Shown here piece after piece: positions 1 through 38,991 of a DNA stretch of 64,000 bases (its first letter is position 1; the number at the start of each line of letters is the position of its first letter). This stretch comes from Marchantia polymorpha subsp. ruderalis (Eukaryota > Streptophyta > Marchantiopsida > Marchantiales > Marchantiaceae): positions 7,212,001-7,276,000 of the forward strand of contig AP031357.1 of the NCBI GenBank assembly GCA_037833965.1, in the 5' to 3' direction. Made by a program: the position numbers and the translations under genes. The notes under the pieces are model-generated. The model made no database searches. It was not told where the DNA came from and was given only the letters and a program-made list of their open reading frames with translations.

Positions 1-93
1 CTGCTACGAGTTCGTGTTTCATGTGGATCATTACGCCTTACAGCACCTGGTGAAGAAGGCGGATCTGTCCGGACGAATTGCTAGGTGGGTACT
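1..93 (+). pseudogene. A-outer pol fragment (end of RNase H region), left of the A1 insertion
   Basis: Translation from base 2 matches the RNase H/connection region of the A1 pol around 9210-9300, including the FHVDHYALQHL stretch. The coding sequence stops where the TG of the A1 5' LTR begins at 94. It resumes at 15619 with the expected next codons, so this is the left half of a gypsy pol split by A1. Bases 89-93 (gtact) are the left target-site duplication. The 5' part of this host element lies before the window. Confidence 0.9.
89..93. repeat. Target-site duplication of A1, left copy (gtact)
   Basis: The 5-bp sequence gtact directly precedes the LTR start and is repeated directly after the 3' LTR at 15614-15618. 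With one copy removed, the two flanks join into uninterrupted pol sequence, as seen in the intact A1 pol near 9296. Confidence 0.95.
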
Positions 94-287
94 TGTGGTA
101 ACACACTTTTTGTTTTTTTTGCAGAATTTAAACAATTTTAGAAAACTAGTACCAAAGCAGTGTTTGTAGCTAGAGAAGGGTACGCTAAATAGAGTGGATT
201 GATGAGATCGTCACGAGGGCACAAAGAATCACGTAGTCGGATGTACCAACGCCAACGTCTTCGGCGCCTTCGGCAAAAGCTCCTTTT

Positions 288-352
288 TGAGGTGTCTCTA
301 CTCACGCGCCTCTAGCGTATAAGGAAGCTACGCTTCCGGCGCAGACACCTCA
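288..352. repeat. Inverted repeat in A LTR U3 (possible stem-loop)
   Basis: TGAGGTGTCT at 288-297 is exactly complementary to AGACACCTCA at 343-352. Inside it lies a second dyad, GGAAGCTACGCTTCC, at 323-337. The structure recurs in other A LTRs (near 10943, 17262, 32167, 46121 and, reversed, 24375 and 58890). In several copies the loop sequence differs while the outer arms are kept or nearly kept. Function is unknown; it could be a protein-binding cruciform or an RNA hairpin. Confidence 0.6.
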
Positions 353-1147
353 GGAGGAGGTTTTGCTAAAGACGTCAGGAGAAGGGCCCGGACCTCTAAA
401 GGCATCCGACCATGAGTGCGCCTTCGGCGAAGCGCCGCTAGCGCGGAAAGGGAAAACCTTCATAACAATCGGGATACACAGTAGATCCAGTTGGTTGAAG
501 TTGCATTAGAAAGAGCTCGGAACGCTCGTTCTAACGAGTCCAAGAGCGCCGGAGATGGATCAGGAATGGAGAAGTTATGAGCGTCGGAAAACTCGTAGCC
601 GGACATGCGCCGTTCGCGCTAGGGTTCACAGCCGGAAAGGATTCCCGTACGCCCTCGGCGATGCGCCTTCGGCGGAATCACGCGCTCACAGGAGGAAACC
701 AACTCAGAGTCGGAAGCGCCCTTGGCGGCTGTTCATGGAAGGAAAGCGCCGGTCGGATGTACGCCTCCGACGTGGCGCTGACGGCCGGATGCGCTGGCAT
801 GAGTTGCGCTGACGGATATGCGCTGGCAGCAACGGACGAGGCATAAAGGACAAAATAGGCGGTACGACTGCGCGCCGGCGTAATTCGCTCCGGCTGGATG
901 TGCGCCTCCAGCAAGGCGCCGACGGATAATGAACGCACCAGCGGCGACACACCTCCGGAGAAGGGCGGGTTAGGAAAAGACAACAGGGCCGACGTATACC
1001 CTGCAGCGGACTCGAGTCCGGAAGGTGGCGGCGGCGGGAGAATTCAACGTTTAAGCATGCGAATGCGCGCAATGCGGAGACGTGAATTCGCGCATGCAAA
1101 GGGCGAACCGTTAAGCCGTATAGCCGGCTGCGTACGTTGCAACCAGT

Positions 1148-1166
1148 AAGAACGTTGGACGTTCTT
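1148..1166. promoter_or_regulatory. 19-bp palindrome with paired ACGT cores upstream of the LTR ORF
   Basis: AAGAACGT-tgg-ACGTTCTT is a perfect dyad with 8-bp arms and a 3-bp spacer, about 285 bp before the LTR-ORF start. ACGT cores are the typical half-sites of plant bZIP factors. The dyad is intact in A1, A-outer (18123) and the reverse solo LTR (about 23567). One arm is mutated in A3 (33043), the A3 3' LTR and the 54252 solo LTR. A regulatory role is inferred only from position and symmetry. Confidence 0.4.
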
Positions 1167-1450
1167 GAAATCGGAGAAGAAAAGACTGCGCTCCAGTCTC
1201 ATTCTCTCATTCTTGACTTTGCGATTTCCAGTTCCAAGATTACGCGCAAGGGCGGAGCGACCTGCAGTGAGAGTAGAGAGTGCGGAGACGAGTTGCGCAA
1301 GGATCTTGGCGGACCTTGAAAGAATTGTGAGTAGCGATCTTGAACGAGCGCAGAGAGAGTGAGCAGTCAGTGCTTGAGTGGCCGACGCACAGTGGCGATT
1401 GTGAGAGAGCGAGCGAAAGGGAGAACGTTTGTGTGTGTGCAGGCAACGCA

Positions 1451-3997
1451 ATGTCGAAGGTTCCCCAGCTGCGAGTGTCTCCACTCAGGGTGCCGCAGAT
1501 CGGTCTACGCGCATTTCAAGATGTGCTGTTGAGGTTGAAGCTCGATTTTCTCCTATGGGGGTGGAATTGGACATGTCCGGAGATGGTGCGCGAGTATCTG
1601 CAGGAGAGACACAAGCCTTCTCGCGGATTTCGCCCACACCCAGAGAGATGGGACATTTGCAATTGGGCGCAGGTGTTGGGCAGGTGTGCCGGCGAGGAAG
1701 GGGATCTCCTCTTCGAGGCCGATAGCGTGAAGGTGTCCCAGGAGGAAGAAGTCTCTTACAATGAGCTCTTCAAAGTGGCCAGACATCCCAAGAACGGTTT
1801 CCGGACACGGGATTACAAGGATCGATTGCGGAGAAATGTCGCGACGGCATTGCTGCAGATATTGCAGCCGACCAAGACCGCTTACATGCATGGTTGGCAG
1901 GTAGAGTTCGTGGAGCTAGTGCTGTCAGGAGCTCCGGTGCATTGGGCACGGCTCCTGTGGAAGGTGACGCGCCAACATGCGCAAGAAGAGAAGGGAGGAA
2001 CCCTCAATCATCTATCGCCTTACTTAATCGTGTTTTACCGGGCGATGGGATGTTTGACAAATGCTGAGAAAACTCGATTTCCGCAGCTGACCCGGACTTA
2101 TCCAGGAAGATATTCGAGGGAGGCCGAAGTAGACACAGATCCGGACGAGGAACCTGCCAGTACGCCTCCGGCTCCGGCCCCAGCAAGAGCAGCAGAAGAA
2201 CGTCGAAGCGAGCTCATTCCGCGAAAGCGAAAGTGGGATGAGAGACCTGAGGACAGGCAGCCGGAAGTGCCAGCTGCGCCGACTCGTGGTCGGCCCACCC
2301 CCGAGCCTCACAGTCAACCAAAACAGAGGGCACGCAAAATGCCAACTGTTACTGAGGAGACCAGGCGAACTCCGACCCGGCGGAATCTCACACAGGAAGA
2401 GATAATCGCTCAGATTCTAGGGAAGACGGCAGATACCTCTGCACAGAAGGCACCACGGCCTTCGGGAGGAGATGGACGGACTGACAGCCGGCCAACTGCG
2501 AGTCGGATGACTGAAGGTCGACAAGCGGAAGGAAGGCCAACTGAACGGCGCGTTGAACCGGACAGCAGGCCGGAAGCAGAAGAGAGTTTGGCTGACGAGC
2601 CAACAATCCTCAAAGGGTCGTCTTCGGCGGAAGGCACTTCTGGAAGAACGCCCCCAACAAGCAGGCCAAGTGGAGTCAAGACGCGCAGGGTGTATCCGAC
2701 TCCCAGTCGGACAACTGCTGGTCGGCCGACTGCGAGTCGGACAACAGAGAGTCAGCCGGATTCGCCGACTGCGAGACGGATGGGGCCAACGACCAGTGTG
2801 CGGACGCCTTCGGCGGACGCACCTTCAGCAAGGACACCTTCCGCGCAGATTGCGCCGGAAGGACAGGCAGCAGAAGCGGGCGGTGCAAGAATGACAAAAG
2901 TCACTGCGGCGTCGACCCCTTCACAAACCGAAGATCGAGCCGGAACAGGGGCTCAAGCAGTGGGATCTCCCACTGCCCTGGATATTTTAGCAGGCAGTGG
3001 AGCAGCAGAAGCTGCTGCGCGCCACAGTTCCAGGGAGTCGCCAAGGGATTCGGTGGCGACTGAAATCCTCGAGACTGAGGATGATACGAGCTCGGAAGAG
3101 CAGGAAGCGGATTCGGTGCAGAAAACGCCAACAGGGGTGCTGTGCGAACAGATAGTTCCACTCCTGCGATATCTGGATCGCAAGACATCCAAATACGGAA
3201 GTGCCTTAAAACCGCAGTCTTATGTGGAGACTATCAGGCGAAGGACGAGGATCAAGGTGGCAAAGTGGGCCTCTAGTTGCCAAGTATATGTGGAAAGGAA
3301 CACCGCCCTCCAACAACACCTGGCGGTCACCCAGAAGCTATACCAAGCCTTGCAGCAGCAGAAGGAGGATGCGGCGACGAAAAGTCAGGCGGATGCCGAA
3401 CTAATACGGGCAAAGATCGAGTTGGAACTGCAGGAGGAGCGGAGACAGAACAAAGTCCTAGCAGCCGAGCTTGCGCGCCAGACGCGCGCCTTAGAAGAAA
3501 GTCAAAGAGCCCGCAAGGAGGATGAGGAGTTGTTGTGCAACTTGCAATCCGAGTGCTCGGATTTGAGGGCACAACGTGCGGGATTAGAAATGCAGCTGGC
3601 CGAGGTGGAGAGCAGCTGCAGGGCGCGAGGAGAGTTGGCGGCACAGGTGACTCGTTGTCTAAAAGGATACACCCATTGGGAGGTGGCAGCCCAAGAGAGG
3701 ATCACACTCAGGGAGTTCGAGCTTCGGGCGGCGGCATTGACGGAAGGTGACAGTCGGAGTCGGCGGCGAGTGGCGAGAAAATTAGAAACCTTCTTGTCGG
3801 GTGCGCGCGACACTATGGCGCACTTGCAGTCGGAAGTCACCACAGCGCTCCGACGCCTGGGGTTACGCAGCCGGTCGGAAGACTGGCAAAGTAGAGATAG
3901 TACGCGGAGCAGTCCGGCGCGCAGGAGGCGCAGCACCGGATCTGCTGAGTGCAGTAGAGTAGTTTGGTTTCGCGCAGATACTGCGAGTGGTAGATAG
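1451..3997 (+). CDS. LTR-encoded coiled-coil protein (LTR-ORF, family A)
   Basis: 848 aa, encoded inside the LTR upstream of the TATA box. I chose ATG 1451 because the context AACGCA-ATG is kept in every A copy and in family B (36082), and homology between families begins a few residues later. Residues about 10-230 form a conserved, probably globular domain rich in Trp and Arg (motifs DFLLWGWN, RTRDYKDR, LNHLSP). About 235-580 is low complexity (P/S/T/R/E, repeated tracts such as GRPTASRTTE). About 590-800 is predicted coiled coil with long runs of E/R/Q/L. The tail is basic and ends near STGSAECS and WFRA. The N-terminal layout loosely resembles the putative plant transposon protein domains found in plant retroelements; this is an untested inference. 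No catalytic motif, signal peptide or membrane segment is visible. Function unknown. Confidence 0.8.
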   Translation: MSKVPQLRVSPLRVPQIGLRAFQDVLLRLKLDFLLWGWNWTCPEMVREYLQERHKPSRGFRPHPERWDICNWAQVLGRCAGEEGDLLFEADSVKVSQEEEVSYNELFKVARHPKNGFRTRDYKDRLRRNVATALLQILQPTKTAYMHGWQVEFVELVLSGAPVHWARLLWKVTRQHAQEEKGGTLNHLSPYLIVFYRAMGCLTNAEKTRFPQLTRTYPGRYSREAEVDTDPDEEPASTPPAPAPARAAEERRSELIPRKRKWDERPEDRQPEVPAAPTRGRPTPEPHSQPKQRARKMPTVTEETRRTPTRRNLTQEEIIAQILGKTADTSAQKAPRPSGGDGRTDSRPTASRMTEGRQAEGRPTERRVEPDSRPEAEESLADEPTILKGSSSAEGTSGRTPPTSRPSGVKTRRVYPTPSRTTAGRPTASRTTESQPDSPTARRMGPTTSVRTPSADAPSARTPSAQIAPEGQAAEAGGARMTKVTAASTPSQTEDRAGTGAQAVGSPTALDILAGSGAAEAAARHSSRESPRDSVATEILETEDDTSSEEQEADSVQKTPTGVLCEQIVPLLRYLDRKTSKYGSALKPQSYVETIRRRTRIKVAKWASSCQVYVERNTALQQHLAVTQKLYQALQQQKEDAATKSQADAELIRAKIELELQEERRQNKVLAAELARQTRALEESQRARKEDEELLCNLQSECSDLRAQRAGLEMQLAEVESSCRARGELAAQVTRCLKGYTHWEVAAQERITLREFELRAAALTEGDSRSRRRVARKLETFLSGARDTMAHLQSEVTTALRRLGLRSRSEDWQSRDSTRSSPARRRRSTGSAECSRVVWFRADTASGR

Positions 3998-4030
3998 GAT
4001 AGCGTAGTGCTAGTTAGGATCTTTTGAGGG

Positions 4031-4037
4031 TATAAAG
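4031..4037 (+). promoter_or_regulatory. TATA box of A1 5' LTR
   Basis: TATAAAG lies 33 bp after the LTR-ORF stop codon and is conserved in all A and B LTRs at the same place (14686, 28118, 31035, 38963, 41298, 48737 and on the minus strand at 20676, 26797, 53743, 63132). It is the best candidate for the start of genome-length RNA, about 30 bp downstream. This puts the LTR ORF in U3. Confidence 0.75.
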
Positions 4038-4042
4038 TAGAT

Positions 4043-4059
4043 CAAGGCGTTTTGCCTTG
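4043..4059. promoter_or_regulatory. Conserved dyad between TATA box and predicted start site
   Basis: CAAGGC-gtttt-GCCTTG is a 6-bp-arm dyad 5 bp after the TATA box. Some B copies have CCAGGC-gtttt-GCCTGG instead (38975, 48749, 26776 reversed), so both arms changed together. Such paired changes point to selection on the dyad, either as a protein-binding site in DNA or as an RNA hairpin near the RNA end. Confidence 0.6.
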
Positions 4060-4701
4060 CGACTCTTCCAGTTTCGGAAGTGCAGATCAGGAACTCACTT
4101 TCTTGGCGTGTTTGTGCATTTTGGTCCTGGCACCACGTAGAGAAGCTGCAGCATAGCAAAGTTACCGTATGTTGTAGTTGAAGGCCTTCGGCTGAATGTT
4201 CAGAGCTAGTACCCGGTTAGAGACTTGAGTAGTGCGGATCTGCACCTGCGGGTGATTTCTGATGCTCAGAGCCGGCTGCGAGTTAGATACTTGAACAGTT
4301 CCCCCTTACTCCTTCGAGTGACATATCCTGATTGTACTCCTACGGGAAGTTTCCCCTGAATGCCAATGTGAAGTTTCATTACTTCGTGTAAACCTTGGTT
4401 TGTAATTCAGGTTGTGTGTGTGTTACTGGATCGTGTTTTCAGTAAGTTCTCAGTCGGGTCTGCACTCCCTGCGTTTTGTGTGATAGTCGAGGGTGACGTC
4501 CACGGCGTACGTAGAGGCTTCGTTCCGAAGTGGGAAGTCCAGTCCGGGTACCCCCGCTAGTTCCTGGCGGAAGGGCAGTAAAAGCCGGAGTGGGAGGCAC
4601 TACCTGCAGAACCTCTGAGTGAACTTGTGAGACACTTTCCTCCTGAAATCCGAAGCGGAGGTCCTGACCGACCTCCGAGTTGTGCTTTTTGCCAGTTTCA
4701 G

Positions 4702-4723
4702 GTGTGTGTGTGTGTGTGTGTGT
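4702..4723 (+). repeat. (GT)n microsatellite in R-U5
   Basis: About 11 GT units directly after the conserved TTTCAG. Every A and B LTR has a GT tract here with a different unit number (for example 31802-31825 and 49495-49523), so it is a fixed, length-variable part of the LTR. Confidence 0.85.
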
Positions 4724-4980
4724 TGAGTGACCACGCTGTACCGTGCATCCTCCGAGCATCCTCCGAGTTGAGATCCTCCTCCGAGTCGAGCCTCCGAGTC
4801 GAGCACTGCAGTATTTCTGGGAGTGACAGTCGCCTAGAATTCAAACTCTACAAAAGTCTGTTAAATGTGACACTTTTACTCTGTGTGTTGCCTCTGTCCC
4901 TGTGGGTTCGATCTTTTTACCACCATACTGCAGTTTTAGCCTTTGGTGGGTTATTACATAAGGAGCCGACAACTTCTTTT

Positions 4981-4998
4981 TGGCGCCGCTGCCGGGGA
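4981..4998 (+). promoter_or_regulatory. Primer-binding site (tRNA-Asp type) of A1
   Basis: TGGCGCCGCTGCCGGGGA differs at one base from the TGGCGCCGTTGCCGGGGA complement of the plant tRNA-Asp 3' end used by Athila-like elements. It begins 22 nt after the LTR end at 4958, not within the usual few bases. The 22-nt gap is kept in A3 and B-outer. Confidence 0.8.
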
Positions 4999-5030
4999 CA
5001 GTGCGTCAACACCAGAAACCTTGAGCAGCA

Positions 5031-5072
5031 ATGCTCGGTGAATGTCGACGAGCGATAGTGTGGGAAACCTGA
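5031..5072 (+). other. 13-codon upstream ORF overlapping the gag start
   Basis: ATG 5031 opens a 13-codon frame, starting MLGEC, that ends at TGA 5070-5072 and overlaps the gag ATG at 5042 in another frame. A3 has the same arrangement (42296). B-outer (49924) also has 13 codons, ending in TAA. A role in limiting gag initiation is possible but inferred. Confidence 0.4.
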
Positions 5073-7870
5073 GTGCGAGAGCCACACGGAAACTCCGTCG
5101 AGATTCAGAAAAAGCCGTGGAAACAAAACGGCGAACTAAAAAGAAGACTCCCGGTGAGGACTCTGCAGAAAGATCGCCATCACCGACTACTGGAAGACAA
5201 AGGCGTTCCAGTTCACCTACCGAGAGCATTGAGCTAACAGTTCTATTGGACATCCCTCCGACAGGAACTCTTTCTGAGTTTGGCCAACCTAGGATCAGTC
5301 CGTCGACAGGATCACCGATGGCAGAACATCAAGCCAATCTCCGCCAGGCGTTTTCCCAACCTACCACCAAACATTCGTATCCAAGATACACGGGAACGGG
5401 CGACGACGATGATGCAGATTCATACATAAAGCTCTTCGAGTCTGTCTCCATCGCCAATCGTGAGACCAGTGATGAAGACAGATTACGAATCTTTCCTAGC
5501 CTGCTACGCAGACGAGCGCGTAGCTGGTACAACCATGAGAGCACCGACCCCACTGGCATCCGGACCTGGGCTCAGCTCAAGGAAAAGTTTCTGAGGCGGT
5601 TCCGCGAACTCGGATATGACAGTCGAGTTCTGACCCGGCTTCGAAATCTTCGACGCGAGCGGAAGGAGAATCTTCGAGACTACACTGAGAGATTCCAAGA
5701 CCTCCTAGATCGAATTCCGAAGACAGGCCCGGGAGAACCGTATTCGGTACAACAGGCAGTGGATTGGTATGTGACAGGGCTCTCAAGAGAAATGGAGACC
5801 TTCTGTAGGAGAGGCAAGACTGACACAATCCAAGATGTGATAGCTTCCGCGGAGACCTTTGAGACGTCAACCCTTGACACTCAAAGACGCGACCGACGGT
5901 CGACGAAGAAGAAGTCGCAAGGCGGACGTCGGAAGAGAAGGAACTCGCCTTCCTCGACAGAAGAATCAAGCTCCTCCGAATCAAGTTCTTCCTCGGAAGA
6001 GGAAGAGGACTCGTCATCTTCAGAAGAAGAAAGACGGAAGAAGAAACGCAGTGCGATCAAGAAGAAGGATCGAGGTAAGGGAATCCCAGTGAAGACTCAA
6101 GGGGACATCGCAGCCAAGGTAGACAACCTGGTGAAGAATTTTGCGGACCTGAAAGTTCATGTAGTGGGAGGCCAAGACCGACGTAAATCACCTGCGAGAC
6201 AACGAGCGAATCTCTGGTGTACTACGTGCGGACAGGTGGGACATGCCAACACGGAGTGCATGTCCGCTAGGCCATCTTACCCAGTGAATGCGGTCGAATG
6301 GGCACCACAGTGGGAGAACCCCATGTATTATGCTGAGCCGCCTATGTATTATGCTGAGCAGGTTGAGGACACCGCCTACTCGGTACAGACAGCTCCAGCT
6401 ACAACTCCGAACCCACCGGTGCATATACCGCGCTTTGTTCCGAGGGAAATGGCGGGTACACTCCCACCAAGACGCATGGCACCTCCAGGCAATCACAACC
6501 GACCTCGACCACAATTCGATGGTTGCTACAACTGCGGAGACATGGGGCATTACGCGCCAAGCTGTCCCCACCCGAGGAAGCCAATGGGGTATGCACCGTT
6601 GTGCAGCAATTGCAAGAAGTCTGGACATACAGTAGCCGAATGTGACCAGCCACAACTCCCTAGGCCAGCCGTGCGTTTCGTATCGACACCTGGCAAGGAA
6701 GAGGTGCAGGTCAACCAGGTAGAACTGAGTCTGGACCCAGCTGAAGAAAACGAAGTATGGCCAGAGGAAGAAGTAATGTGCGGCCGGGTAGAAACCCGAA
6801 GTTCGAAGAGGAGAGGAGAAGGCCATGAGGACACTCGCCGCCTCGAGCGTAGGGAAGAGAGGAGGAAGTCTAAAGAAGTTAGAGAAGGCCAAAGGAGAAC
6901 GCCAAGTACACCTCCGGCTATGAGAAACACCCAGCCGGAGCAGAACTCAGAAAAGGCGAACAGGTATTCGGAAGAGTTCCGGACTCGAGATTACCTTCCG
7001 GACATCAAAGATGAGGTGAGTCACCTCATCAAGGAAGCACTGGGCGCCGGAATGACATCCGACGTCCGGAAGGCGGTTAGGCCCCCTACACCACTTCCGA
7101 CCGCGAGTACAGGAAAACTTCCGGCTGTGACTTCCAACACTCCCTACGACATAGTGGAAGACATAGGGAGCCAGAGGGCAAATATTTCCTTCCACCAGTT
7201 GTTGGAAGACAATAAGACGTACAGAAGGATGCTGATGCTTTCGTTGCGCCGACCACGCAAACCCCGAAAAGAGAAACTTCCGGCTGTGTACAGAGTGGAA
7301 GGAGGAGACCTGGGACCTCCAGAGATCGAAGTAGAGATCGGAGGCTGCGTCATACAGAAGGTACCAGTGGACTCCGGCTCGGGCGTGAATATCATGACCG
7401 AGGAGACAGCGAACTCCTTGGGGTTCCAGACCTTCGAGCCTACATCCCGAGTATTGCGACTGGCCGATCAAACACGCAGAATGCCACTAGGAATGTTGAG
7501 CAATGTGAGAACCAACATTGGAGGAGTGGACTTTCAACTGTCCTACATAATACTGCAACCTCTGATGAAGAAAGGTTATGATGTGCTGCTTGGCAGACCG
7601 TGGCTATACGATGCCAAAGCAAGGTGTGACTGGAGTAGGAAGAGATTACAGTTCCGTAGCCCTGCGGACCCTCCGACTGTCATTACCGTACCGTGGACCA
7701 AGGTACCCCATGAGGGCGAAACACCTTCCACCACCTCCGGTTACACAACTGGAAGGGAGACCAGCTCATCATGCACTTCAGAGACCGAAACGTCGGAGGA
7801 CTTTGTGGGCTACGTCACTTGCTGCTCCATTGAGGAGGAAGGAGACGAGGTGTATCCGGATGAGGAATAG
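5042..7870 (+). CDS. gag-pro: Gag-protease polyprotein (A1)
   Basis: 942 aa, forms the particle and supplies the protease. Visible in order: a basic N-terminus; a retrotransposon Gag capsid region at about 125-285 (contains RARSWYNHE and LREKF-like LKEKFLRRFRELGYDSR); a Ser/Glu/Lys-rich stretch at about 290-350; three CCHC zinc knuckles of form C-x2-C-x4-H-x4-C at about 393-406, 495-508 and 521-534; and a retropepsin with catalytic D777-S-G and a downstream LLGRPWL motif. The start ATG is shared with B-outer. The frame ends at TAG 7868-7870, and pol follows in the same frame, so Pol is probably made by stop-codon readthrough. No defect seen. Confidence 0.95.
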   Translation: MSTSDSVGNLSARATRKLRRDSEKAVETKRRTKKKTPGEDSAERSPSPTTGRQRRSSSPTESIELTVLLDIPPTGTLSEFGQPRISPSTGSPMAEHQANLRQAFSQPTTKHSYPRYTGTGDDDDADSYIKLFESVSIANRETSDEDRLRIFPSLLRRRARSWYNHESTDPTGIRTWAQLKEKFLRRFRELGYDSRVLTRLRNLRRERKENLRDYTERFQDLLDRIPKTGPGEPYSVQQAVDWYVTGLSREMETFCRRGKTDTIQDVIASAETFETSTLDTQRRDRRSTKKKSQGGRRKRRNSPSSTEESSSSESSSSSEEEEDSSSSEEERRKKKRSAIKKKDRGKGIPVKTQGDIAAKVDNLVKNFADLKVHVVGGQDRRKSPARQRANLWCTTCGQVGHANTECMSARPSYPVNAVEWAPQWENPMYYAEPPMYYAEQVEDTAYSVQTAPATTPNPPVHIPRFVPREMAGTLPPRRMAPPGNHNRPRPQFDGCYNCGDMGHYAPSCPHPRKPMGYAPLCSNCKKSGHTVAECDQPQLPRPAVRFVSTPGKEEVQVNQVELSLDPAEENEVWPEEEVMCGRVETRSSKRRGEGHEDTRRLERREERRKSKEVREGQRRTPSTPPAMRNTQPEQNSEKANRYSEEFRTRDYLPDIKDEVSHLIKEALGAGMTSDVRKAVRPPTPLPTASTGKLPAVTSNTPYDIVEDIGSQRANISFHQLLEDNKTYRRMLMLSLRRPRKPRKEKLPAVYRVEGGDLGPPEIEVEIGGCVIQKVPVDSGSGVNIMTEETANSLGFQTFEPTSRVLRLADQTRRMPLGMLSNVRTNIGGVDFQLSYIILQPLMKKGYDVLLGRPWLYDAKARCDWSRKRLQFRSPADPPTVITVPWTKVPHEGETPSTTSGYTTGRETSSSCTSETETSEDFVGYVTCCSIEEEGDEVYPDEE

Positions 7871-7876
7871 CAACTA
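7868..7876 (+). promoter_or_regulatory. Stop-codon readthrough site between gag-pro and pol
   Basis: UAG CAA CUA fits the known leaky-stop context UAG-CAR-YYA (the tobamovirus type). The frame stays open from 7871 straight into RT with no shift. B-outer has UAG CAA UUA at the matching place (52752-52760). This would set the Gag:Gag-Pol ratio. Confidence 0.75.
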
Positions 7877-10396
7877 GCAGCCGGACTGGGCAGAAGCGAG
7901 ATCAGTCACACAGAGGGGATTGTTGACCCGAGTGATTGCTGCGAACTGCAGCTCAGTCCAGGTAAAGGCTTGAAGGTGTCAAGCCAGGTACAAGGAGAAG
8001 AGTTGAACAGGGTACAGGCGTTTCTTCGCCAGTATGAGGATGTCTTCGCATGGAAGATTGAAGACATGAAAGGCATACCTGCAAGGTATGGAGAGCACAG
8101 GATCGACTTGTTGGACGAGGCAGTTCCGGTTCGCCAACGCCAATACAGGCTCAACCCAAAATATTCATTATTGGTGAAGGACGAAATCGATAAGTACCTG
8201 AGCGCAGGAATCATCTACCCGGTACTCAGTAGCGAGTGGGTGTCGCCTATCGTGATCGTGCCCAAGAAACTGACGGGTAAGATCCGGGTGTGCCAGGACT
8301 TCCGAAAGCTGAACGCAGCAACGAGGAAGGACCATCACCCTCTTCCTTTCACGGACTCTATTTTAGACCATGTAGCAGGGCATGAATGCTACAGTTTCCT
8401 AGACGGATTCTCCGGCTACAACCAGGTGTCCATCAGGGAACAGGACAAGGACAAAACAACCTTCACGACCGACTGGGGAACCTATGCTTATCACAAGATG
8501 CCGTTCGGTCTGTGCAACGCGCCAGCGACGTTCCAGCGGATGATGACAAACATTTTCCAAGAGCACCTGAGGAAGTTCCTAGAAATTTTCATCGACGACT
8601 TTTGTGTCTTCGGTAAGAGGTCGGAGCACCTTAACCATCTTCGGCAAACGTTCGACAGATGTAGGGAGAGCAGCTTGTCCTTACACCCTGAGAAATGTTT
8701 CTTCTTCATGACCAGCGGAATCCTGCTAGGGCACCGAGTTTCGTCCGATGGCATTGCAGTGGATGTAGAGAAGGTGAAGATTATTCTCGAACTGCAGCCG
8801 CCAACGAATCTGCGTGAGTTGAGGGCCTTCCTTGGCCATGTAGGTTATTACAGAAGGTTCATAAATATGTACGCCATCTTGGCAGCCAACCTGACGAAGC
8901 TGCTTAAGAAGGAGGAACCCTATGTGTGGGGCAAAGAGCAACAGCTGGCGTTTGAAACGCTCAAAGCCAAACTGACGACTGCTCCGGTTCTGAGAAGTCC
9001 GGATTGGAACAGACCTTTCCATGTCTATGTAGACACGTCGGCGTTTGCAATCGGAGTGGTTCTCAGTCAGAAGGACGACAACAAGAAAGACTACCCGATT
9101 TACTTCGCGAGTCGTCAGTTGTCAGCAGCAGAGAAGAAATACACGACAACTGAGAGGGAGGCGTTGGGAATGGTGTACTCCTGTAAGAAGTTCCGACATT
9201 ATTTGATCTGCTATGAGTTCGTGTTTCATGTAGATCATTACGCCTTACAGCACCTGGTGAAGAAGGCGGATCTGTCCGGACGAATTGCCAGGTGGGTACT
9301 ACTGCTGCAGGAATTCACCTACACTGTACAGACACGGAAAGGCGTTCACCATGAGAACGCGGACTACCTCTCCCGACTATGGACCGAACCCATAGAGGAG
9401 GAAGTAGTGGATGATTTTCCCGACGAACAACTTTTTCAGTTGTCCGCCAGCCATGAGTCCAGGTACGCGGACTTATACAGGTTTCTGCTCACACTCCAAT
9501 GTCCGGAAGGATTGGATGCGGAGCAGCGCACAGTCTTCGTTCATAAAGCGGGACCTTACCAGCTTCAACAGGGGGTCTTGTTCAAGAAAATGGCAGACGA
9601 CAGGCTGTGCAGATGTCTAGAGGAGTCTGAAGTCCCGCGAGTTGTAAAAGCCATGCACACAGAAGACGCTGGTGGTCACTACGCCACCAGAAATACAGTG
9701 ACCAAAATTGTGAATGCAGGATACTGGTGGCCGACGATGTTCAAAGATGTACACGACTACGTTCGCAAATGCGACAGCTGCCAGAGGACGGGAAGGCCGA
9801 CTCCGACCACGAGATGGCCTCTTACACCAATCATGCCATTGGCACCATTTGAAAAATGGGGGATCGACTTCGTGGGACCAATACAACCTGTCACTAAAGG
9901 CACGCGCAGGCGCTACATATTGGTAGCAACAGACTATGCGACCAAGATGGTGGAGGCAGAAGCCACAAGGCACGACGACGCAGCCGCAGTAGCACGGTTC
10001 CTATTCGAATCCATCATCACACGCTACGGGTGCCCCCTAGAAATAGTCAGTGACAGAGGAACGCACTTTCTGAATCAGGTGATAGAAAGTTTGACGCGGC
10101 ACTTCCAGATTAAGCATCGGAAGACTACTCCATACAACCCCAAGGCAAATGGTCTGACAGAGAAGTCCAATGGATTACTCTGTAAGATACTCCTCAAAGT
10201 GACTGTAAACCATGCTCATGACTGGGACACCAAGCTACCGGCCGCCTTATGGGCATATAGAACGGCAGAAAAAGTCACCACCAGGCAAACACCTTACTTC
10301 CTAGTTTATGGGCAGCATCCGATCTTACCCATCGAATTCGAGATACCTACCAAGAGGACCTTAGATCAGAGAAGGCTGGACGCGGAAGAAAGTTAG
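7871..10396 (+). CDS. pol: Pol: reverse transcriptase, RNase H, integrase (A1, ends at a nonsense codon)
   Basis: Same frame as gag-pro and read after the UAG at 7868. RT lies at about 8100-8850 with the PFGLCNAPATFQ motif and the catalytic FIDD (aspartates at 8594-8599). RNase H follows at about 9000-9300 with FHVYVDTS and TEREAL. Integrase has an N-terminal H-H-C-C zinc region (about 9655-9790, ending KCDSCQ) and a catalytic triad D (9866), D (10052), E (10160) with 35 residues between the last two. There is no chromodomain. TAG at 10394-10396 replaces a CAG that is intact in A-outer (16709) and A3, so the last about 105 residues are cut off. The enzyme core is intact, but whether the truncated integrase works is unknown. 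Confidence 0.93.
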   Translation, partial: QLAAGLGRSEISHTEGIVDPSDCCELQLSPGKGLKVSSQVQGEELNRVQAFLRQYEDVFAWKIEDMKGIPARYGEHRIDLLDEAVPVRQRQYRLNPKYSLLVKDEIDKYLSAGIIYPVLSSEWVSPIVIVPKKLTGKIRVCQDFRKLNAATRKDHHPLPFTDSILDHVAGHECYSFLDGFSGYNQVSIREQDKDKTTFTTDWGTYAYHKMPFGLCNAPATFQRMMTNIFQEHLRKFLEIFIDDFCVFGKRSEHLNHLRQTFDRCRESSLSLHPEKCFFFMTSGILLGHRVSSDGIAVDVEKVKIILELQPPTNLRELRAFLGHVGYYRRFINMYAILAANLTKLLKKEEPYVWGKEQQLAFETLKAKLTTAPVLRSPDWNRPFHVYVDTSAFAIGVVLSQKDDNKKDYPIYFASRQLSAAEKKYTTTEREALGMVYSCKKFRHYLICYEFVFHVDHYALQHLVKKADLSGRIARWVLLLQEFTYTVQTRKGVHHENADYLSRLWTEPIEEEVVDDFPDEQLFQLSASHESRYADLYRFLLTLQCPEGLDAEQRTVFVHKAGPYQLQQGVLFKKMADDRLCRCLEESEVPRVVKAMHTEDAGGHYATRNTVTKIVNAGYWWPTMFKDVHDYVRKCDSCQRTGRPTPTTRWPLTPIMPLAPFEKWGIDFVGPIQPVTKGTRRRYILVATDYATKMVEAEATRHDDAAAVARFLFESIITRYGCPLEIVSDRGTHFLNQVIESLTRHFQIKHRKTTPYNPKANGLTEKSNGLLCKILLKVTVNHAHDWDTKLPAALWAYRTAEKVTTRQTPYFLVYGQHPILPIEFEIPTKRTLDQRRLDAEES

Positions 10397-10711: not shown

Positions 10712-10735
10712 ATGTTCGCGTGGGCGCTCACAATT

Positions 10736-10748
10736 GAGGAGGGGGGCA
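10736..10748 (+). promoter_or_regulatory. Polypurine tract of A1
   Basis: GAGGAGGGGGGCA directly abuts the 3' LTR start at 10749, the expected place for the plus-strand primer. The same tract precedes the A-outer (17054-17066) and A3 (45913-45925) 3' LTRs. Confidence 0.9.
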
Positions 10749-12105
10749 TGTGGTAACACACTTTTTGTTTTTTTTGCAGAATTTAAACAATTTTAGAAAA
10801 CTAGTACCAAAGCAGTGTTTGTAGCTAGAGAAGGGTACGCTAAATAGAGTGGATTGATGAGATCGTCACGAGGGCACAAAGAATCACGTAGTCGGATGTA
10901 CCAACGCCAACGTCTTCGGCGCCTTCGGCAAAAGCTCCTTTTTGAGGTGTCTCTACTCACGCGCCTCTAGCGTATAAGGAAGCTACGCTTCCGGCGCAGA
11001 CACCTCAGGAGGAGGTTTTGCTAAAGACGTCAGGAGAAGGGCCCGGACCTCTAAAGGCATCCGACCATGAGTGCGCCTTCGGCGAAGCGCCGCTAGCGCG
11101 GAAAGGGAAAACCTTCATAACAATCGGGATACACGGTAGATCCAGTTGGTTGAAGTTGCATTAGAAAGAGCTCGGGACGCTCGTTCTAACGAGTCCAAGA
11201 GCGCCGGAGATGGATCAGGAATGGAGAAGTTATGAGCGTCGGAAAACTCGTAGCCGGACATGCGCCGTTCGCGCTAGGGTTCACAGCCGGAAAGGATTCC
11301 CGTACGCCCTCGGCGATGCGCCTTCGGCGGAATCACGCGCTCACAGGAGGAAACCAACTCAGAGTCGGAAGCGCCCTTGGCGGCTGTTCATGGAAGGAAA
11401 GCGCCGGTCGGATGTACGCCTCCGACGTGGCGCTGACGGCCGGATGCGCTGGCATGAGTTGCGCTGACGGATATGCGCTGGCAGCAACGGACGAGGCATA
11501 AAGGACAAAATAGGCGGTACGACTGCGCGCCGGCGTAATTCGCTCCGGCTGGATGTGCGCCTCCAGCAAGGCGCCGACGGATAATGAACGCACCAGCGGC
11601 GACACACCTCCGGAGAAGGGCGGGTTAGGAAAAGACAACAGGGCCGACGTATACCCTGCAGCGGACTCGAGTCCGGAAGGTGGCGGCGGCGGGAGAATTC
11701 AACGTTTAAGCATGCGAATGCGCGCAATGCGGAGACGTGAATTCGCGCATGCAAAGGGCGAACCGTTAAGCCGTATAGCCGGCTGCGTACGTTGCAACCA
11801 GTAAGAACGTTGGACGTTCTTGAAATCGGAGAAGAAAAGACTGCGCTCCAGTCTCATTCTCTCATTCTTGACTTTGCGATTTCCAGTTCCAAGATTACGC
11901 GCAAGGGCGGAGCGACCTGCAGTGAGAGTAGAGAGTGCGGAGACGAGTTGCGCAAGGATCTTGGCGGACCTTGAAAGAATTGTGAGTAGCGATCTTGAAC
12001 GAGCGCAGAGAGAGTGAGCAGTCAGTGCTTGAGTGGCCGACGCACAGTGGCGATTGTGAGAGAGCGAGCGAAAGGGAGAACGTTTGTGTGTGTGCAGGCA
12101 ACGCA

Positions 12106-14652
12106 ATGTCGAAGGTTCCCCAGCTGCGAGTGTCTCCACTCAGGGTGCCGCAGATCGGTCTACGCGCATTTCAAGATGTGCTGTTGAGGTTGAAGCTCGA
12201 TTTTCTCCTATGGGGGTGGAATTGGACATGTCCGGAGATGGTGCGCGAGTATCTGCAGGAGAGACACAAGCCTTCTCGCGGATTTCGCCCACACCCAGAG
12301 AGATGGGACATTTGCAATTGGGCGCAGGTGTTGGGCAGGTGTGCCGGCGAGGAAGGGGATCTCCTCTTCGAGGCCGATAGCGTGAAGGTGTCCCAGGAGG
12401 AAGAAGTCTCTTACAATGAGCTCTTCAAAGTGGCCAGACATCCCAAGAACGGTTTCCGGACACGGGATTACAAGGATCGATTGCGGAGAAATGTCGCGAC
12501 GGCATTGCTGCAGATATTGCAGCCGACCAAGACCGCTTACATGCATGGTTGGCAGGTAGAGTTCGTGGAGCTAGTGCTGTCAGGAGCTCCGGTGCATTGG
12601 GCACGGCTCCTGTGGAAGGTGACGCGCCAACATGCGCAAGAAGAGAAGGGAGGAACCCTCAATCATCTATCGCCTTACTTAATCGTGTTTTACCGGGCGA
12701 TGGGATGTTTGACAAATGCTGAGAAAACTCGATTTCCGCAGCTGACCCGGACTTATCCAGGAAGATATTCGAGGGAGGCCGAAGTAGACACAGATCCGGA
12801 CGAGGAACCTGCCAGTACGCCTCCGGCTCCGGCCCCAGCAAGAGCAGCAGAAGAACGTCGAAGCGAGCTCATTCCGCGAAAGCGAAAGTGGGATGAGAGA
12901 CCTGAGGACAGGCAGCCGGAAGTGCCAGCTGCGCCGACTCGTGGTCGGCCCACCCCCGAGCCTCACAGTCAACCAAAACAGAGGGCACGCAAAATGCCAA
13001 CTGTTACTGAGGAGACCAGGCGAACTCCGACCCGGCGGAATCTCACACAGGAAGAGATAATCGCTCAGATTCTAGGGAAGACGGCAGATACCTCTGCACA
13101 GAAGGCACCACGGCCTTCGGGAGGAGATGGACGGACTGACAGCCGGCCAACTGCGAGTCGGATGACTGAAGGTCGACAAGCGGAAGGAAGGCCAACTGAA
13201 CGGCGCGTTGAACCGGACAGCAGGCCGGAAGCAGAAGAGAGTTTGGCTGACGAGCCAACAATCCTCAAAGGGTCGTCTTCGGCGGAAGGCACTTCTGGAA
13301 GAACGCCCCCAACAAGCAGGCCAAGTGGAGTCAAGACGCGCAGGGTGTATCCGACTCCCAGTCGGACAACTGCTGGTCGGCCGACTGCGAGTCGGACAAC
13401 AGAGAGTCAGCCGGATTCGCCGACTGCGAGACGGATGGGGCCAACGACCAGTGTGCGGACGCCTTCGGCGGACGCACCTTCAGCAAGGACACCTTCCGCG
13501 CAGATTGCGCCGGAAGGACAGGCAGCAGAAGCGGGCGGTGCAAGAATGACAAAAGTCACTGCGGCGTCGACCCCTTCACAAACCGAAGATCGAGCCGGAA
13601 CAGGGGCTCAAGCAGTGGGATCTCCCACTGCCCTGGATATTTTAGCAGGCAGTGGAGCAGCAGAAGCTGCTGCGCGCCACAGTTCCAGGGAGTCGCCAAG
13701 GGATTCGGTGGCGACTGAAATCCTCGAGACTGAGGATGATACGAGCTCGGAAGAGCAGGAAGCGGATTCGGTGCAGAAAACGCCAACAGGGGTGCTGTGC
13801 GAACAGATAGTTCCACTCCTGCGATATCTGGATCGCAAGACATCCAAATACGGAAGTGCCTTAAAACCGCAGTCTTATGTGGAGACTATCAGGCGAAGGA
13901 CGAGGATCAAGGTGGCAAAGTGGGCCTCTAGTTGCCAAGTATATGTGGAAAGGAACACCGCCCTCCAACAACACCTGGCGGTCACCCAGAAGCTATACCA
14001 AGCCTTGCAGCAGCAGAAGGAGGATGCGGCGACGAAAAGTCAGGCGGATGCCGAACTAATACGGGCAAAGATCGAGTTGGAACTGCAGGAGGAGCGGAGA
14101 CAGAACAAAGTCCTAGCAGCCGAGCTTGCGCGCCAGACGCGCGCCTTAGAAGAAAGTCAAAGAGCCCGCAAGGAGGATGAGGAGTTGTTGTGCAACTTGC
14201 AATCCGAGTGCTCGGATTTGAGGGCACAACGTGCGGGATTAGAAATGCAGCTGGCCGAGGTGGAGAGCAGCTGCAGGGCGCGAGGAGAGTTGGCGGCACA
14301 GGTGACTCGTTGTCTAAAAGGATACACCCATTGGGAGGTGGCAGCCCAAGAGAGGATCACACTCAGGGAGTTCGAGCTTCGGGCGGCGGCATTGACGGAA
14401 GGTGACAGTCGGAGTCGGCGGCGAGTGGCGAGAAAATTAGAAACCTTCTTGTCGGGTGCGCGCGACACTATGGCGCACTTGCAGTCGGAAGTCACCACAG
14501 CGCTCCGACGCCTGGGGTTACGCAGCCGGTCGGAAGACTGGCAAAGTAGAGATAGTACGCGGAGCAGTCCGGCGCGCAGGAGGCGCAGCACCGGATCTGC
14601 TGAGTGCAGTAGAGTAGTTTGGTTTCGCGCAGATACTGCGAGTGGTAGATAG
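12106..14652 (+). CDS. LTR-encoded coiled-coil protein, 3' LTR copy (A1)
   Basis: 848 aa, with translation identical to the 1451-3997 copy in the 5' LTR. Same start context AACGCA-ATG, same N-terminal conserved domain, low-complexity middle and C-terminal coiled coil. It lies in U3 of the 3' LTR, so it is part of the genome-length transcript initiated in the 5' LTR. No splice sites conserved across copies were found to bring it near an RNA 5' end. Function unknown. Confidence 0.8.
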   Translation: MSKVPQLRVSPLRVPQIGLRAFQDVLLRLKLDFLLWGWNWTCPEMVREYLQERHKPSRGFRPHPERWDICNWAQVLGRCAGEEGDLLFEADSVKVSQEEEVSYNELFKVARHPKNGFRTRDYKDRLRRNVATALLQILQPTKTAYMHGWQVEFVELVLSGAPVHWARLLWKVTRQHAQEEKGGTLNHLSPYLIVFYRAMGCLTNAEKTRFPQLTRTYPGRYSREAEVDTDPDEEPASTPPAPAPARAAEERRSELIPRKRKWDERPEDRQPEVPAAPTRGRPTPEPHSQPKQRARKMPTVTEETRRTPTRRNLTQEEIIAQILGKTADTSAQKAPRPSGGDGRTDSRPTASRMTEGRQAEGRPTERRVEPDSRPEAEESLADEPTILKGSSSAEGTSGRTPPTSRPSGVKTRRVYPTPSRTTAGRPTASRTTESQPDSPTARRMGPTTSVRTPSADAPSARTPSAQIAPEGQAAEAGGARMTKVTAASTPSQTEDRAGTGAQAVGSPTALDILAGSGAAEAAARHSSRESPRDSVATEILETEDDTSSEEQEADSVQKTPTGVLCEQIVPLLRYLDRKTSKYGSALKPQSYVETIRRRTRIKVAKWASSCQVYVERNTALQQHLAVTQKLYQALQQQKEDAATKSQADAELIRAKIELELQEERRQNKVLAAELARQTRALEESQRARKEDEELLCNLQSECSDLRAQRAGLEMQLAEVESSCRARGELAAQVTRCLKGYTHWEVAAQERITLREFELRAAALTEGDSRSRRRVARKLETFLSGARDTMAHLQSEVTTALRRLGLRSRSEDWQSRDSTRSSPARRRRSTGSAECSRVVWFRADTASGR

Positions 14653-14685
14653 GATAGCGTAGTGCTAGTTAGGATCTTTTGAGGG

Positions 14686-14692
14686 TATAAAG
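14686..14692 (+). promoter_or_regulatory. TATA box of A1 3' LTR
   Basis: TATAAAG, followed by the CAAGGC/GCCTTG dyad at 14698-14714. From this copy, transcripts would run out into the A-outer pol remnant. Confidence 0.7.
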
Positions 14693-15613
14693 TAGATCAA
14701 GGCGTTTTGCCTTGCGACTCTTCCAGTTTCGGAAGTGCAGATCAGGAACTCACTTTCTTGGCGTGTTTGTGCATTTTGGTCCTGGCACCACGTAGAGAAG
14801 CTGCAGCATAGCAAAGTTACCGTATGTTGTAGTTGAAGGCCTTCGGCTGAATGTTCAGAGCTAGTACCCGGTTAGAGACTTGAGTAGTGCGGATCTGCAC
14901 CTGCGGGTGATTTCTGATGCTCAGAGCCGGCTGCGAGTTAGATACTTGAACAGTTCCCCCTTACTCCTTCGAGTGACATATCCTGATTGTACTCCTACGG
15001 GAAGTTTCCCCTAAATGCCAATGTGAAGTTTCATTACTTCGTGTAAACCTTGGTTTGTAATTCAGGTTGTGTGTGTGTTACTGGATCGTGTTTTCAGTAA
15101 GTTCTCAGTCGGGTCTGCACTCCCTGCGTTTTGTGTGATAGTCGAGGGTGACGTCCACGGCGTACGTAGAGGCTTCGTTCCGAAGTGGGAAGTCCAGTCC
15201 GGGTACCCCCGCTAGTTCCTGGCGGAAGGGCAGTAAAAGCCGGAGTGGGAGGCACTACCTGCAGAACCTCTGAGTGAACTTGTGAGACACTTTCCTCCTG
15301 AAATCCGAAGCGGAGGTCCTGACCGACCTCCGAGTTGTGCTTTTTGCCAGTTTCAGGTGTGTGTGTGTGTGTGTGTGTTGAGTGACCACGCTGTACCGTG
15401 CATCCTCCGAGCATCCTCCGAGTTGAGATCCTCCTCCGAGTCGAGCCTCCGAGTCGAGCACTGCAGTATTTCTGGGAGTGACAGTCGCCTAGAATTCAAA
15501 CTCTACAAAAGTCTGTTAAATGTGACACTTTTACTCTGTGTGTTGCCTCTGTCCCTGTGGGTTCGATCTTTTTACCACCATACTGCAGTTTTAGCCTTTG
15601 GTGGGTTATTACA

Positions 15614-19758: not shown

Positions 19759-20675
19759 TGTAATAACCCACCAAAGGCTAAAACTGCAGTATGGTGGTAA
19801 AAAGATCGAACCCACAGGGACAGAGGCAACACACAGAGTAAAAGTGTCACGTTTAACAGACTTTTGTAGAGTTTGAATTCTAGGCGACTGTCACTCCCAG
19901 AAATACTGCAGTGCTCGACTCGGAGGCTCGACTCGGAGGAGGATCTCAACTCGGAGGATGCTCGGAGGATGCACGGTACAGCGTGGTCACTCAACACACA
20001 CACACACACACCTGAAACTGGCAAAAAGCACAACTCGGAGGTCGGTCAGGACCTCCGCTTCGGATTTCAGGAGGAAAGTGTCTCACAAGTTCACTCAGAG
20101 GTTCTGCAGGTAGTGCCTTCCACTCCGGCTTTTACTGCCCTTCCGCCAGGAACTAGCGGGGGTACCCGGACTAGACTTCCCACTTCGGAACGAAGCCTCT
20201 ACATACGCCGTGGACGTCACCCTCGACTATCACACCAAACGCAGGGAGTGCAGACCCGACTGAGAACTTACTGAAAACACGATCCAGTAACACACACACA
20301 ACCTGAATTACAAACCAAGGTTTACACGAAGTAATAAAACTTCACATTGGCATTCAGGGGAAACTTCCCGTAGGAGTACAATCAGGATACGTCACTCGAA
20401 GGAGTAAGGGGGAACTGTTCAAGTATCTAACTCGCAGCCGGCTCTGAGCATCAGAAATCACCCGCAGGTGCAGATCCGCACTACTCAAGTCTCTAACCGG
20501 GTGCTAGCTCTAAACATTCGGCCGAAGGCCTTCAACTACAACATACGGTAACTTCGCTATGCTGCAGCTTCTCTACGTGGTGCCAGGACCAAAATGCACA
20601 AACACGCCAAGAAAGTGAGTTCCTGATCTGCACTTCCGAAACTGGAAGAGTCCCAAGGCAAAACGCCTTGATCTA

Positions 20676-20682
20676 CTTTATA
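20676..20682 (-). promoter_or_regulatory. TATA box of reverse solo A LTR
   Basis: TATAAAG on the minus strand, just downstream of the LTR-ORF stop at 20716, with the CAAGGC/GCCTTG dyad beside it (20654-20670). Transcription would run leftward and produce RNA antisense to the A-outer LTR and pol. Confidence 0.7.
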
Positions 20683-20715
20683 CCCTCAAAAGATCCTAAC
20701 TAGCACTACGCTATC

Positions 20716-38937: not shown

Positions 38938-38962
38938 TGTAGTGCTAGTAGGACTTAGAAGG

Positions 38963-38991
38963 TATAAAATAGTTCCAGGCGTTTTGCCTGG
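38963..38991 (+). promoter_or_regulatory. TATA box and dyad of solo B LTR
   Basis: TATAAAAT at 38963-38970, then CCAGGC-gtttt-GCCTGG at 38975-38991. Compared with family A, one base pair of the dyad is changed on both arms. Confidence 0.72.

What the first reader, a model, noticed from the sequence alone, without database searches (positions are those of the whole stretch)
1451..3997. A long protein gene lives inside the LTR (U3) of a gypsy retrotransposon
The sequence shows an 848-aa ORF wholly inside a 4.87-kb LTR, before the TATA box and therefore in U3. It occurs in every long A and B LTR seen. Plant LTRs normally lack coding genes. The best-known parallel is the U3-encoded accessory gene of mouse mammary tumour virus, by position only. 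In the 3' LTR it would lie near the 3' end of genome RNA, and each solo LTR carries a copy of its own. That it is a working accessory protein is inference.
Basis: partly seen in the sequence, partly recalled or inferred. Interest (0 to 1): 0.9.

Follow-up and report, generated by a model that had tools for sequence, protein, structure and literature searches.

The report
Protein gene inside retrotransposon's terminal repeat
In the liverwort Marchantia polymorpha, a very abundant Ty3/gypsy jumping element carries an 848-amino-acid protein gene inside its long terminal repeat, ahead of the predicted start of its own transcript, and the gene has been kept by natural selection; it likely makes a helper protein for the element, and even leftover single repeats carry copies of it.

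Summary
The window is Marchantia polymorpha. Element 94-15613 has 4,865-bp LTRs (3 differences, none in the ORF) and 5-bp target-site duplications. The LTR holds an ATG-started 848-codon ORF (1451-3997) ending 33 bp before a TATA box found in all 17 LTRs aligned, hence in predicted U3. Between diverged copies its frame shows dN/dS 0.21-0.39 (gag-PR 0.25); other forward frames give 0.88-1.24. In two LTR pairs the ORF indels are multiples of three; flanking ones are 1, 2, 4 or 16 bp. Subfamilies only 47-50% identical in protein have it too. Pattern counts: 1,478 A-type ORF starts, 3,210 core promoters. A solo LTR carries an intact copy. The protein has only weak coiled-coil or low-complexity Pfam hits, no significant PDB match, no transmembrane segment, and a KRKW-like basic motif (27 of 30), suggesting a nuclear accessory protein. 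Expression, transcript start and function are untested; AlphaFold models were poor; splice signals are only partly conserved. My literature searches found no plant LTR gene, but one survey's counts could hide such ORFs. Position resembles mouse mammary tumour virus sag; no homology was seen. New variant of a known kind.

The parts
89..93 (.). left target-site duplication GTACT (right copy 15614-15618)
94..4958 (+). 5' LTR (4,865 bp, TGTGGTAACA...GGTTATTACA)
1205..1235 (+). conserved block (CTCATTCTTGA.TTTGCGATTTC) about 215-245 bp before the ORF start; candidate start region of an ORF mRNA (inferred)
   Evidence: best conserved stretch of 1031-1440 in 18 copies
1451..3997 (+). LTR ORF, 848 aa, in predicted U3
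1451..2140 (+). N-terminal domain, about 230 aa; mostly helical in a low-confidence model
2219..2239 (+). basic motif PRKRKWD (RKRK at residue 258), NLS-like; pattern present in 27 of 30 homologues covering it
3116..3760 (+). helix/coiled-coil-like region, approximately residues 556-770
   Evidence: weak coiled-coil Pfam hits, composition
4031..4040 (+). TATA box (TATAAAGTAG), present in 17 of 17 LTRs aligned; predicted promoter of the genomic RNA
4061..4958 (+). predicted R-U5 (boundaries not mapped)
4981..4999 (+). primer binding site TGGCGCCGCTGCCGGGGAC (tRNA type not assigned by a call)
5042..7870 (+). gag-protease ORF (942 aa)
7868..7876 (+). TAG CAA CTA at the gag-PR/RT boundary; readthrough-type context
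7871..10393 (+). RT-RNase H-integrase frame
10736..10746 (+). polypurine tract just before the 3' LTR
10749..15613 (+). 3' LTR
12106..14652 (+). second copy of the LTR ORF in the 3' LTR, identical to 1451-3997
19759..24631 (-). solo LTR (TSD CGGAC both sides)
20716..23271 (-). intact LTR ORF (851 aa) in that solo LTR
34586..39936 (+). B-type solo LTR, 5,351 bp (TSD AAGAC both sides)
36082..38928 (+). B-type homologue of the ORF, one stop at 38632
54252..59151 (-). solo LTR, 4,900 bp; GGATT on both sides read from the printed flanks
55211..57772 (-). LTR ORF homologue in that solo LTR, one internal stop (codon 390)

Best explanation
The long terminal repeat of this Marchantia polymorpha Ty3/gypsy element holds an 848-codon gene, in predicted U3, that purifying selection has kept and that likely encodes a nuclear accessory protein of the element. 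Shown: the ORF, its place between the LTR start and the conserved TATA box, frame-specific purifying selection of the same order as on gag-PR, its presence in divergent subfamilies and in solo LTRs, and high copy number. Inferred mechanism: an mRNA would start in the conserved block about 215-245 bp upstream of the ATG and end at the same poly(A) site in R that the genomic RNA uses, so each LTR, solo LTRs included, would be a complete small gene. The protein (mostly helical N-domain in a weak model, KRKW-like motif, Ser/Thr/Pro-rich linker, coiled-coil-like C-part, basic tail, no transmembrane segment) would enter the nucleus and act in trans on the element's own LTRs or RNA, for example to keep them expressed. 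Inferred origin: because the ORF lies between the polypurine tract and R, an extra ORF in the env position would become part of U3, and so be copied into both LTRs, once the priming tract lay upstream of it.
For: ORF and LTR anatomy. TATA box 3' of the ORF in 17 of 17 aligned LTRs. dN/dS: element 1 vs solo E3 0.25 (bootstrap 0.16-0.38), vs E4 0.30 (0.23-0.37), E3 vs E4 0.32; vs four partial copies 0.24, 0.23, 0.27, 0.39; two pairs within another subfamily 0.30 and 0.39; two distant pairs 0.26 and 0.21 with dS above 1.6 (saturated); gag-PR 0.25. Other forward frames 0.88-1.24. ORF indels +9 (E3) and +6, +9 (E4); flanks show 1, 2, 4 and 16 bp. Start context AACGC[AG]ATG in 18 of 18 copies whose match reached residue 1 (the ATG itself is partly by that choice, the context before it is not). 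Among 28 equal-length young copies, 39 nonsynonymous to 49 synonymous variants against an expected 2.3:1 under an assumed transition weighting, nominal p about 1e-6 (LTR pairs of one element are in the set, so variants are not all independent). Homologues 47-50% identical over 705-816 codons, and a third subfamily whose interrupted copy lies upstream of a B-like LTR 3' end. Copy number: 1,478 ORF starts, 3,210 core promoters, controls 0. Basic motif in 27 of 30; no 19-residue window above 1.05 in hydropathy.
Against: No transcript, ribosome or peptide data could be reached. U3/R limits and the internal start site are predictions. No informative Pfam, PDB or fold match; both N-domain models are poor (mean pLDDT 60 and 50). 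Flanking LTR read as codons gives 0.54-1.10 forward and 0.44-0.95 reverse, not exactly 1, so the baseline is biased low. The B-type comparison and the second gag-PR comparison had infinite dS and give no ratio. An AG lies 6-8 bp before the ATG in 17 of 18 copies (read), which fits a spliced route as well. Many older copies are broken, as expected for dead insertions.
Confidence: 0.6

Rival explanations
1. Same gene, other expression route: the protein would be made only from the 3' LTR copy, as the last cistron of the genomic RNA, by splicing a leader from R/U5 to a site just before the ATG (the retroviral nef/sag manner); the 5' LTR and solo LTR copies would be silent by-products.
For: An AG lies 6-8 bp upstream of the ATG in 17 of 18 aligned copies (all but L042), and in the A group it ends a TGTGTGTGCAG acceptor-like site. 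A donor-like GT[AG]AGT at the start of U5 is present in 6 of 17 LTRs. Some host gene models fuse LTR-ORF and gag pieces in both orders (P0018, P0068, P0061).
Against: The U5 donor-like site is missing in 11 of 17 LTRs and the acceptor-like pyrimidine/TG stretch is A-group only. The fused gene models look like automatic annotation (my reading).
Confidence: 0.3
2. A structural or packaging protein: the coiled-coil and basic protein would assemble with Gag or genomic RNA in particles rather than act in the nucleus.
For: Coiled-coil-like C-part and basic tail; selection comparable to gag-PR.
Against: The KRKW-like motif (27 of 30) points to the nucleus; no capsid, nucleocapsid or zinc-knuckle match.
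Confidence: 0.2
3. A passenger: an ORF carried along without function, kept open by recent amplification from one source.
For: The copies scored in the first search are very young: 53 of 53 at 99-100% identity.
Against: Frame-specific selection between copies diverged at dS 0.08-0.51, frame-keeping indels and a conserved start context.
Confidence: 0.03
4. Mis-called U3: the main transcript would start before the ORF, so the ORF would sit in a very long R or leader and be translated as the first cistron of the genomic RNA.
For: A conserved block about 215-245 bp before the ATG could be a start site.
Against: A TATA box lies downstream of the ORF in 17 of 17 LTRs; R/U5 varies less than the rest of the LTR, as expected for transcript-end signals.
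Confidence: 0.1

Closest known systems
Mouse mammary tumour virus sag (superantigen encoded in the 3' LTR)
   Same: A whole protein gene in a long terminal repeat; sag is called an 'LTR-encoded ERV protein' (PMC11998498, passages read)
   Different: No homology appeared in the sequence searches run here (sag itself was not compared). Sag is a type II transmembrane protein (same paper); this one has no transmembrane segment. This one is in a plant Ty3/gypsy element, in over a thousand LTR copies by pattern count, solo LTRs included
Extra ORFs of plant Tat/Athila elements (plant mobile domain in Ogre, Transposase_28 in Retand, Athila ORF-1)
   Same: Additional long ORF of unknown role in non-chromovirus plant gypsy elements (PMC6317226 and PMC11963269, passages; PMC7264820, part 1 of 3)
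   Different: The review and the Retand paper speak of ORFs in the internal region; [quoted passage not shown] None of the three Pfam families matched the ORF
Retrosat2/RIRE3/RIRE8 ORF0 (rice)
   Same: Extra ORF in an element with LTRs of about 3 kb or more (PMC3485330, passages read)
   Different: ORF0 is described as upstream of the gag-pol ORF and was searched separately from the LTR; the passages do not say in so many words that it lies outside the LTR. Chromovirus-type elements (recalled)
VANDAL VANC anti-silencing proteins (Arabidopsis)
   Same: What the new protein might work like: a transposon protein that acts in trans on the element's own noncoding DNA (PMC10398659, abstract and outline read)
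   Different: DNA transposons; VANC targets form tandem repeats, for which the evidence here is mixed; no sequence relation shown
HIV nef (recalled)
   Same: A gene downstream of the polypurine tract that reaches into U3
   Different: nef only overlaps the 3' LTR in part; recalled, not tested

Membership tests
Ty3/gypsy LTR retrotransposon | two LTRs, TSD, PBS, PPT, gag-PR-RT-RH-INT order | tested here: met
[not shown]
   [not shown]
[not shown]
   a single RNase H region, no chromodomain match; absence by Pfam only
Known plant eORF families (PF10536, PF04195, PF03078) | Pfam match of the extra ORF | tested here: not met
   not among hits up to E 10 for P0001; not among hits up to E 1 for the 16 members of A1, P0001 included (HMMER filters drop most hits above about 0.1). 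The PF04195 genome search rang nowhere, controls included, so that one is uninformative
U3-resident retroviral accessory gene (sag-like position) | whole ORF inside U3 and so in both LTRs | tested here: met
   the U3 limit is predicted from the TATA box
MMTV sag family | type II transmembrane protein | tested here: not met
   maximum 19-residue hydropathy 1.05
env-like aORF | transmembrane segments | tested here: not met
VANC-like anti-silencing factor | binding to own noncoding repeats and loss of silent marks | not testable with these tools
   no binding or methylation data
VANC-like anti-silencing factor | repeated target motifs in the noncoding region | tested here: inconclusive
   top 8-mers of the A1 5' U3 occur 3 times, the 95% level of shuffles; in the B-type 5' U3 one palindromic motif occurs 5 times (95% level 4); in A1 R/U5 CCTCCGAG occurs 5 times and an AC repeat more (95% level 3)
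Purifying-selected protein gene | frame-specific dN/dS well below 1 | tested here: met

The most novel reading that the evidence does not exclude
The LTR is itself a complete gene: each LTR, including hundreds of solo LTRs left after the element is lost, expresses a nuclear protein that acts in trans to keep the whole LTR family unsilenced or mobile. Solo LTRs would then be a distributed helper supply and not dead debris.
Probability: 0.15. Interest if true: 0.92.

Novelty: new variant of a known kind. Interest (0 to 1): 0.74.

Why it matters
LTRs are generally treated as noncoding control DNA (recalled), and the review and Retand paper I read speak of extra ORFs in the internal region. Here a long, selected gene sits in an LTR whose core promoter is present about 3,200 times in a model plant. 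It would mean that solo LTRs can carry an intact protein gene, that automatic annotation can count transposon LTR genes as host genes (Mp_8g15400 is about 95% identical to the C-terminal 496 residues), and that reverse transcription can turn a gene near the 3' end into a two-copy LTR gene. It gives a testable system for why retroelements keep accessory proteins.

Tried and rejected
Chance open frame: disfavoured by dN/dS, shifted frames, indels and start context. A 5' UTR intron donor (GTGAGT) seen in element 1 is not kept in the other copies; a U5 donor-like site is in 6 of 17 LTRs; the AG before the ATG is in 17 of 18, so splicing is unproven but not excluded. VANC-like target repeats: mixed. 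Internal (non-LTR) ancestor of the ORF: the one locus of the third subfamily that I fetched (L046) also has the ORF, in pieces, upstream of LTR-like 3' sequence, so no ancestral state was found. Relatives outside Marchantia: three protein searches named only M. polymorpha (16, 42 and 26 hits; 5 of the 42 and 1 of the 26 are unnamed contigs); the search needs shared 5-residue words, so this does not show absence. Rfam: no match in 1-15700. Dropped rows: 'A1 vs L003' read the wrong strand and is void, and two comparisons had infinite dS; the motif count (4 of 5) used too strict a pattern and is replaced; one codon variant with two changes was left out of the counts, and one stop variant is not in the N:S figures. 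In one search codons with gaps or stops were skipped. PF04195 genome search was uninformative. Genome searches with P0005 and P0008 did not complete and I gave them up.
Full report
What is there. The window is taken to be Marchantia polymorpha: all 16 hits of the first protein search are M. polymorpha entries, one of them (P0017) is matched at 100% in the window's own genome, and the assembly has 241 Mb in 9 contigs. Element 1 spans 94-15613. Its LTRs (94-4958, 10749-15613) are 4,865 bp and differ at 3 positions, none in the ORF; it has TG..CA ends and a GTACT duplication on both sides. The interior holds gag-protease and RT-RNase H-integrase, a primer binding site and a polypurine tract. The element is inserted in the pol of a relative.

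The ORF. 1451-3997 is an ATG-started frame of 848 codons, identical in the 3' LTR (12106-14652). The only TATA[AT]A[AGT] match on the + strand of the LTR is at 4031; the block around it is conserved in all 17 LTRs aligned, across subfamilies. The ORF is therefore in predicted U3, 1.36 kb from the LTR start and 33 bp before the TATA box. The context AACGC[AG]ATG is present in 18 of 18 copies aligned; these copies were chosen because their protein match reached residue 1, so the ATG itself is partly by selection.

It is a selected protein gene. In the ORF frame dN/dS is 0.25 (element 1 vs solo E3), 0.30 (vs solo E4), 0.32 (E3 vs E4), 0.24, 0.23 and 0.27 (partial copies), 0.39 (C-terminal half of another), and 0.30 and 0.39 for two pairs within another subfamily; two distant pairs give 0.26 and 0.21 with saturated dS, and the B-type pair has infinite dS. 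gag-PR gives 0.25 in one pair and infinite dS in the other. Read in the other forward frames the two ORF alignments tested give 0.88-1.24; reverse frames of the ORF give 0.33-1.47, the low one (0.33, 0.44) being the frame whose degenerate positions probably fall on those of the true frame. Flanking LTR read as codons gives 0.54-1.10 forward and 0.44-0.95 reverse, so the no-selection baseline lies somewhat below 1. ORF indels are 9 bp (E3) and 6 and 9 bp (E4); flanking indels are 1, 2, 4 and 16 bp. Among the 28 equal-length young copies of the 30 fetched, single-change nonsynonymous to synonymous variants are 39:49 against an expected 2.3:1 (nominal p about 1e-6; singletons 20:20, p 0.008). That expectation assumes a transition weighting, and LTR pairs of one element are in the set.

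How widespread. The first genome search scored 53 copies out of 13,425 first-look candidates, all 99-100% identical; 50 of 53 have no stop. Ten copies picked by hand at rough intervals from the 100 listed of 1,478 ORF-start matches (the listed ones are exact matches): 7 of 10 are open for 851 codons. Pattern counts with up to 3 mismatches, control patterns 0: core promoter 3,210, A-type ORF start 1,478, 5' LTR/PBS junction 1,255, gag-PR/RT junction 364. If each of those 364 had two LTRs, about half of the ORF starts would lie outside such elements; this is rough, since the thresholds are not comparable. A second subfamily (P0007 query, 63 scored candidates, 144 matches) is about 50% identical in protein to element 1 in the two loci compared; 14 of the 15 loci taken have stops in the match, and the fifteenth, L031, has one at codon 16. 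A third (P0017 query, 81 scored, 108 matches) also mostly shows stops; the one locus fetched has the ORF in pieces upstream of sequence matching the end of a B-type LTR.

Window census. Complete uninterrupted copies: both LTRs of element 1 and the solo LTR 19759-24631. With stops or split: 18428-19756 plus 24632-25849; 33348-34586 plus 39934-41262 (split by a B-type solo LTR, TSD AAGAC); 36082-38928; 55214-57772; and further fragments.

The protein. A conserved N-terminal domain (about 230 aa) is followed by a Ser/Thr/Pro-rich stretch (35% S+T+P in residues 231-555), a helix/coiled-coil-like part and a basic tail. The pattern K[RK][RK][WFLR], mostly within PRKRKW, follows the N-domain in 27 of 30 homologues that cover it, near-identical window copies included. 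No 19-residue window exceeds a hydropathy of 1.05. Pfam and PDB give only weak hits.

How it may work (inferred). The best conserved stretch of 1031-1440 is 1205-1235. With the R-region end signals it would make each LTR a promoter-ORF-terminator unit. The rival, a spliced sag/nef-like mRNA, has some support: an AG lies 6-8 bp before the ATG in 17 of 18 copies, but the stretch before it is acceptor-like only in the A group and a U5 donor-like site is present in 6 of 17 LTRs. The nuclear-type motif and the lack of membrane segments favour a nuclear accessory role; I cannot show it. Origin: any gene between the polypurine tract and R becomes part of both LTRs, so a shift of the priming tract upstream of an env-position ORF would be enough (inference from retroviral replication, recalled).

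What is known. Searches for ORFs in LTRs returned 15, 0, 19 and 0 papers (listings seen), among them work on mouse mammary tumour virus; none of the listed titles or abstract starts describes a plant LTR gene. Of two of these papers I read passages. The library lacks most subscription journals. [quoted passage not shown]); it does not separate LTR from internal positions in the passages I read. A review describes additional ORFs in the internal region (PMC7264820, part 1 of 3), and so does a Retand study (PMC11963269, passages). Retrosat2 ORF0 is upstream of the gag-pol ORF (PMC3485330, passages). Tat elements without the additional RNase H are reported from Marchantia (PMC10508981, passages), consistent with the single RNase H here. 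Marchantia LTR retrotransposons are methylated and reprogrammed in the life cycle (PMC5784723, passages), which suggests tissues for expression tests.

Verdict. Real, and not described as far as these searches reach: a selected protein gene inside the LTR of an abundant plant retrotransposon. Coding and selection I hold at about 0.95; expression from a U3 start about 0.4-0.5; nuclear accessory role about 0.5; the solo-LTR helper model about 0.15.

Noticed in passing
window 7868-7876 and 52752-52760: The gag-PR frames of two subfamilies end in TAG followed by CAA CTA or CAA TTA, the CARYYA leaky-stop context known from tobacco mosaic virus (recalled); RT follows in the same frame (841 open codons) in the first, while the second is cut off 12 codons on. 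Suggests Pol is made by stop-codon readthrough.
   Followed up: partly
G000 contig C1 (5.59 Mb): In the listed exact matches, core promoters are denser on small contig C1 (20, 3.6 per Mb) than on C2 (41, 1.3 per Mb), and so are ORF starts, 28 (5.0 per Mb) against 53 (1.7 per Mb). C1 may be a sex chromosome (inferred from its size).
   Followed up: no
G000:C1 2438714-2441185, 2845083-2847554, 3187596-3190067: Three matches with identical or nearly identical scores and the same layout hint at a large triplicated block on C1.
   Followed up: no
protein P0003 (Mp_8g15400): An annotated 'hypothetical protein' of Marchantia matches the C-terminal 496 residues of this LTR ORF at about 95%, so the transposon gene is counted as a host gene.
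   Followed up: no
proteins P0018, P0061, P0068: Host gene models fuse LTR-ORF pieces with gag in both orders; P0018 also has a long Arg/Glu/Asp/Lys-rich stretch between them of unknown source.
   Followed up: partly
B-type 5' U3, window 34586-36081: A short palindromic motif (8-mers CCTGTGCA, CTGTGCAC and GCACAGGC, 5 times each) exceeds the shuffle level and could be a binding site.
   Followed up: no
window 49649-49850: The end of a B-type LTR is repeated in tandem (74- and 55-bp units) before a primer binding site, an odd LTR/PBS junction.
   Followed up: no
window 10394-10396: An in-frame TAG interrupts the frame after the integrase core in element 1.
   Followed up: no
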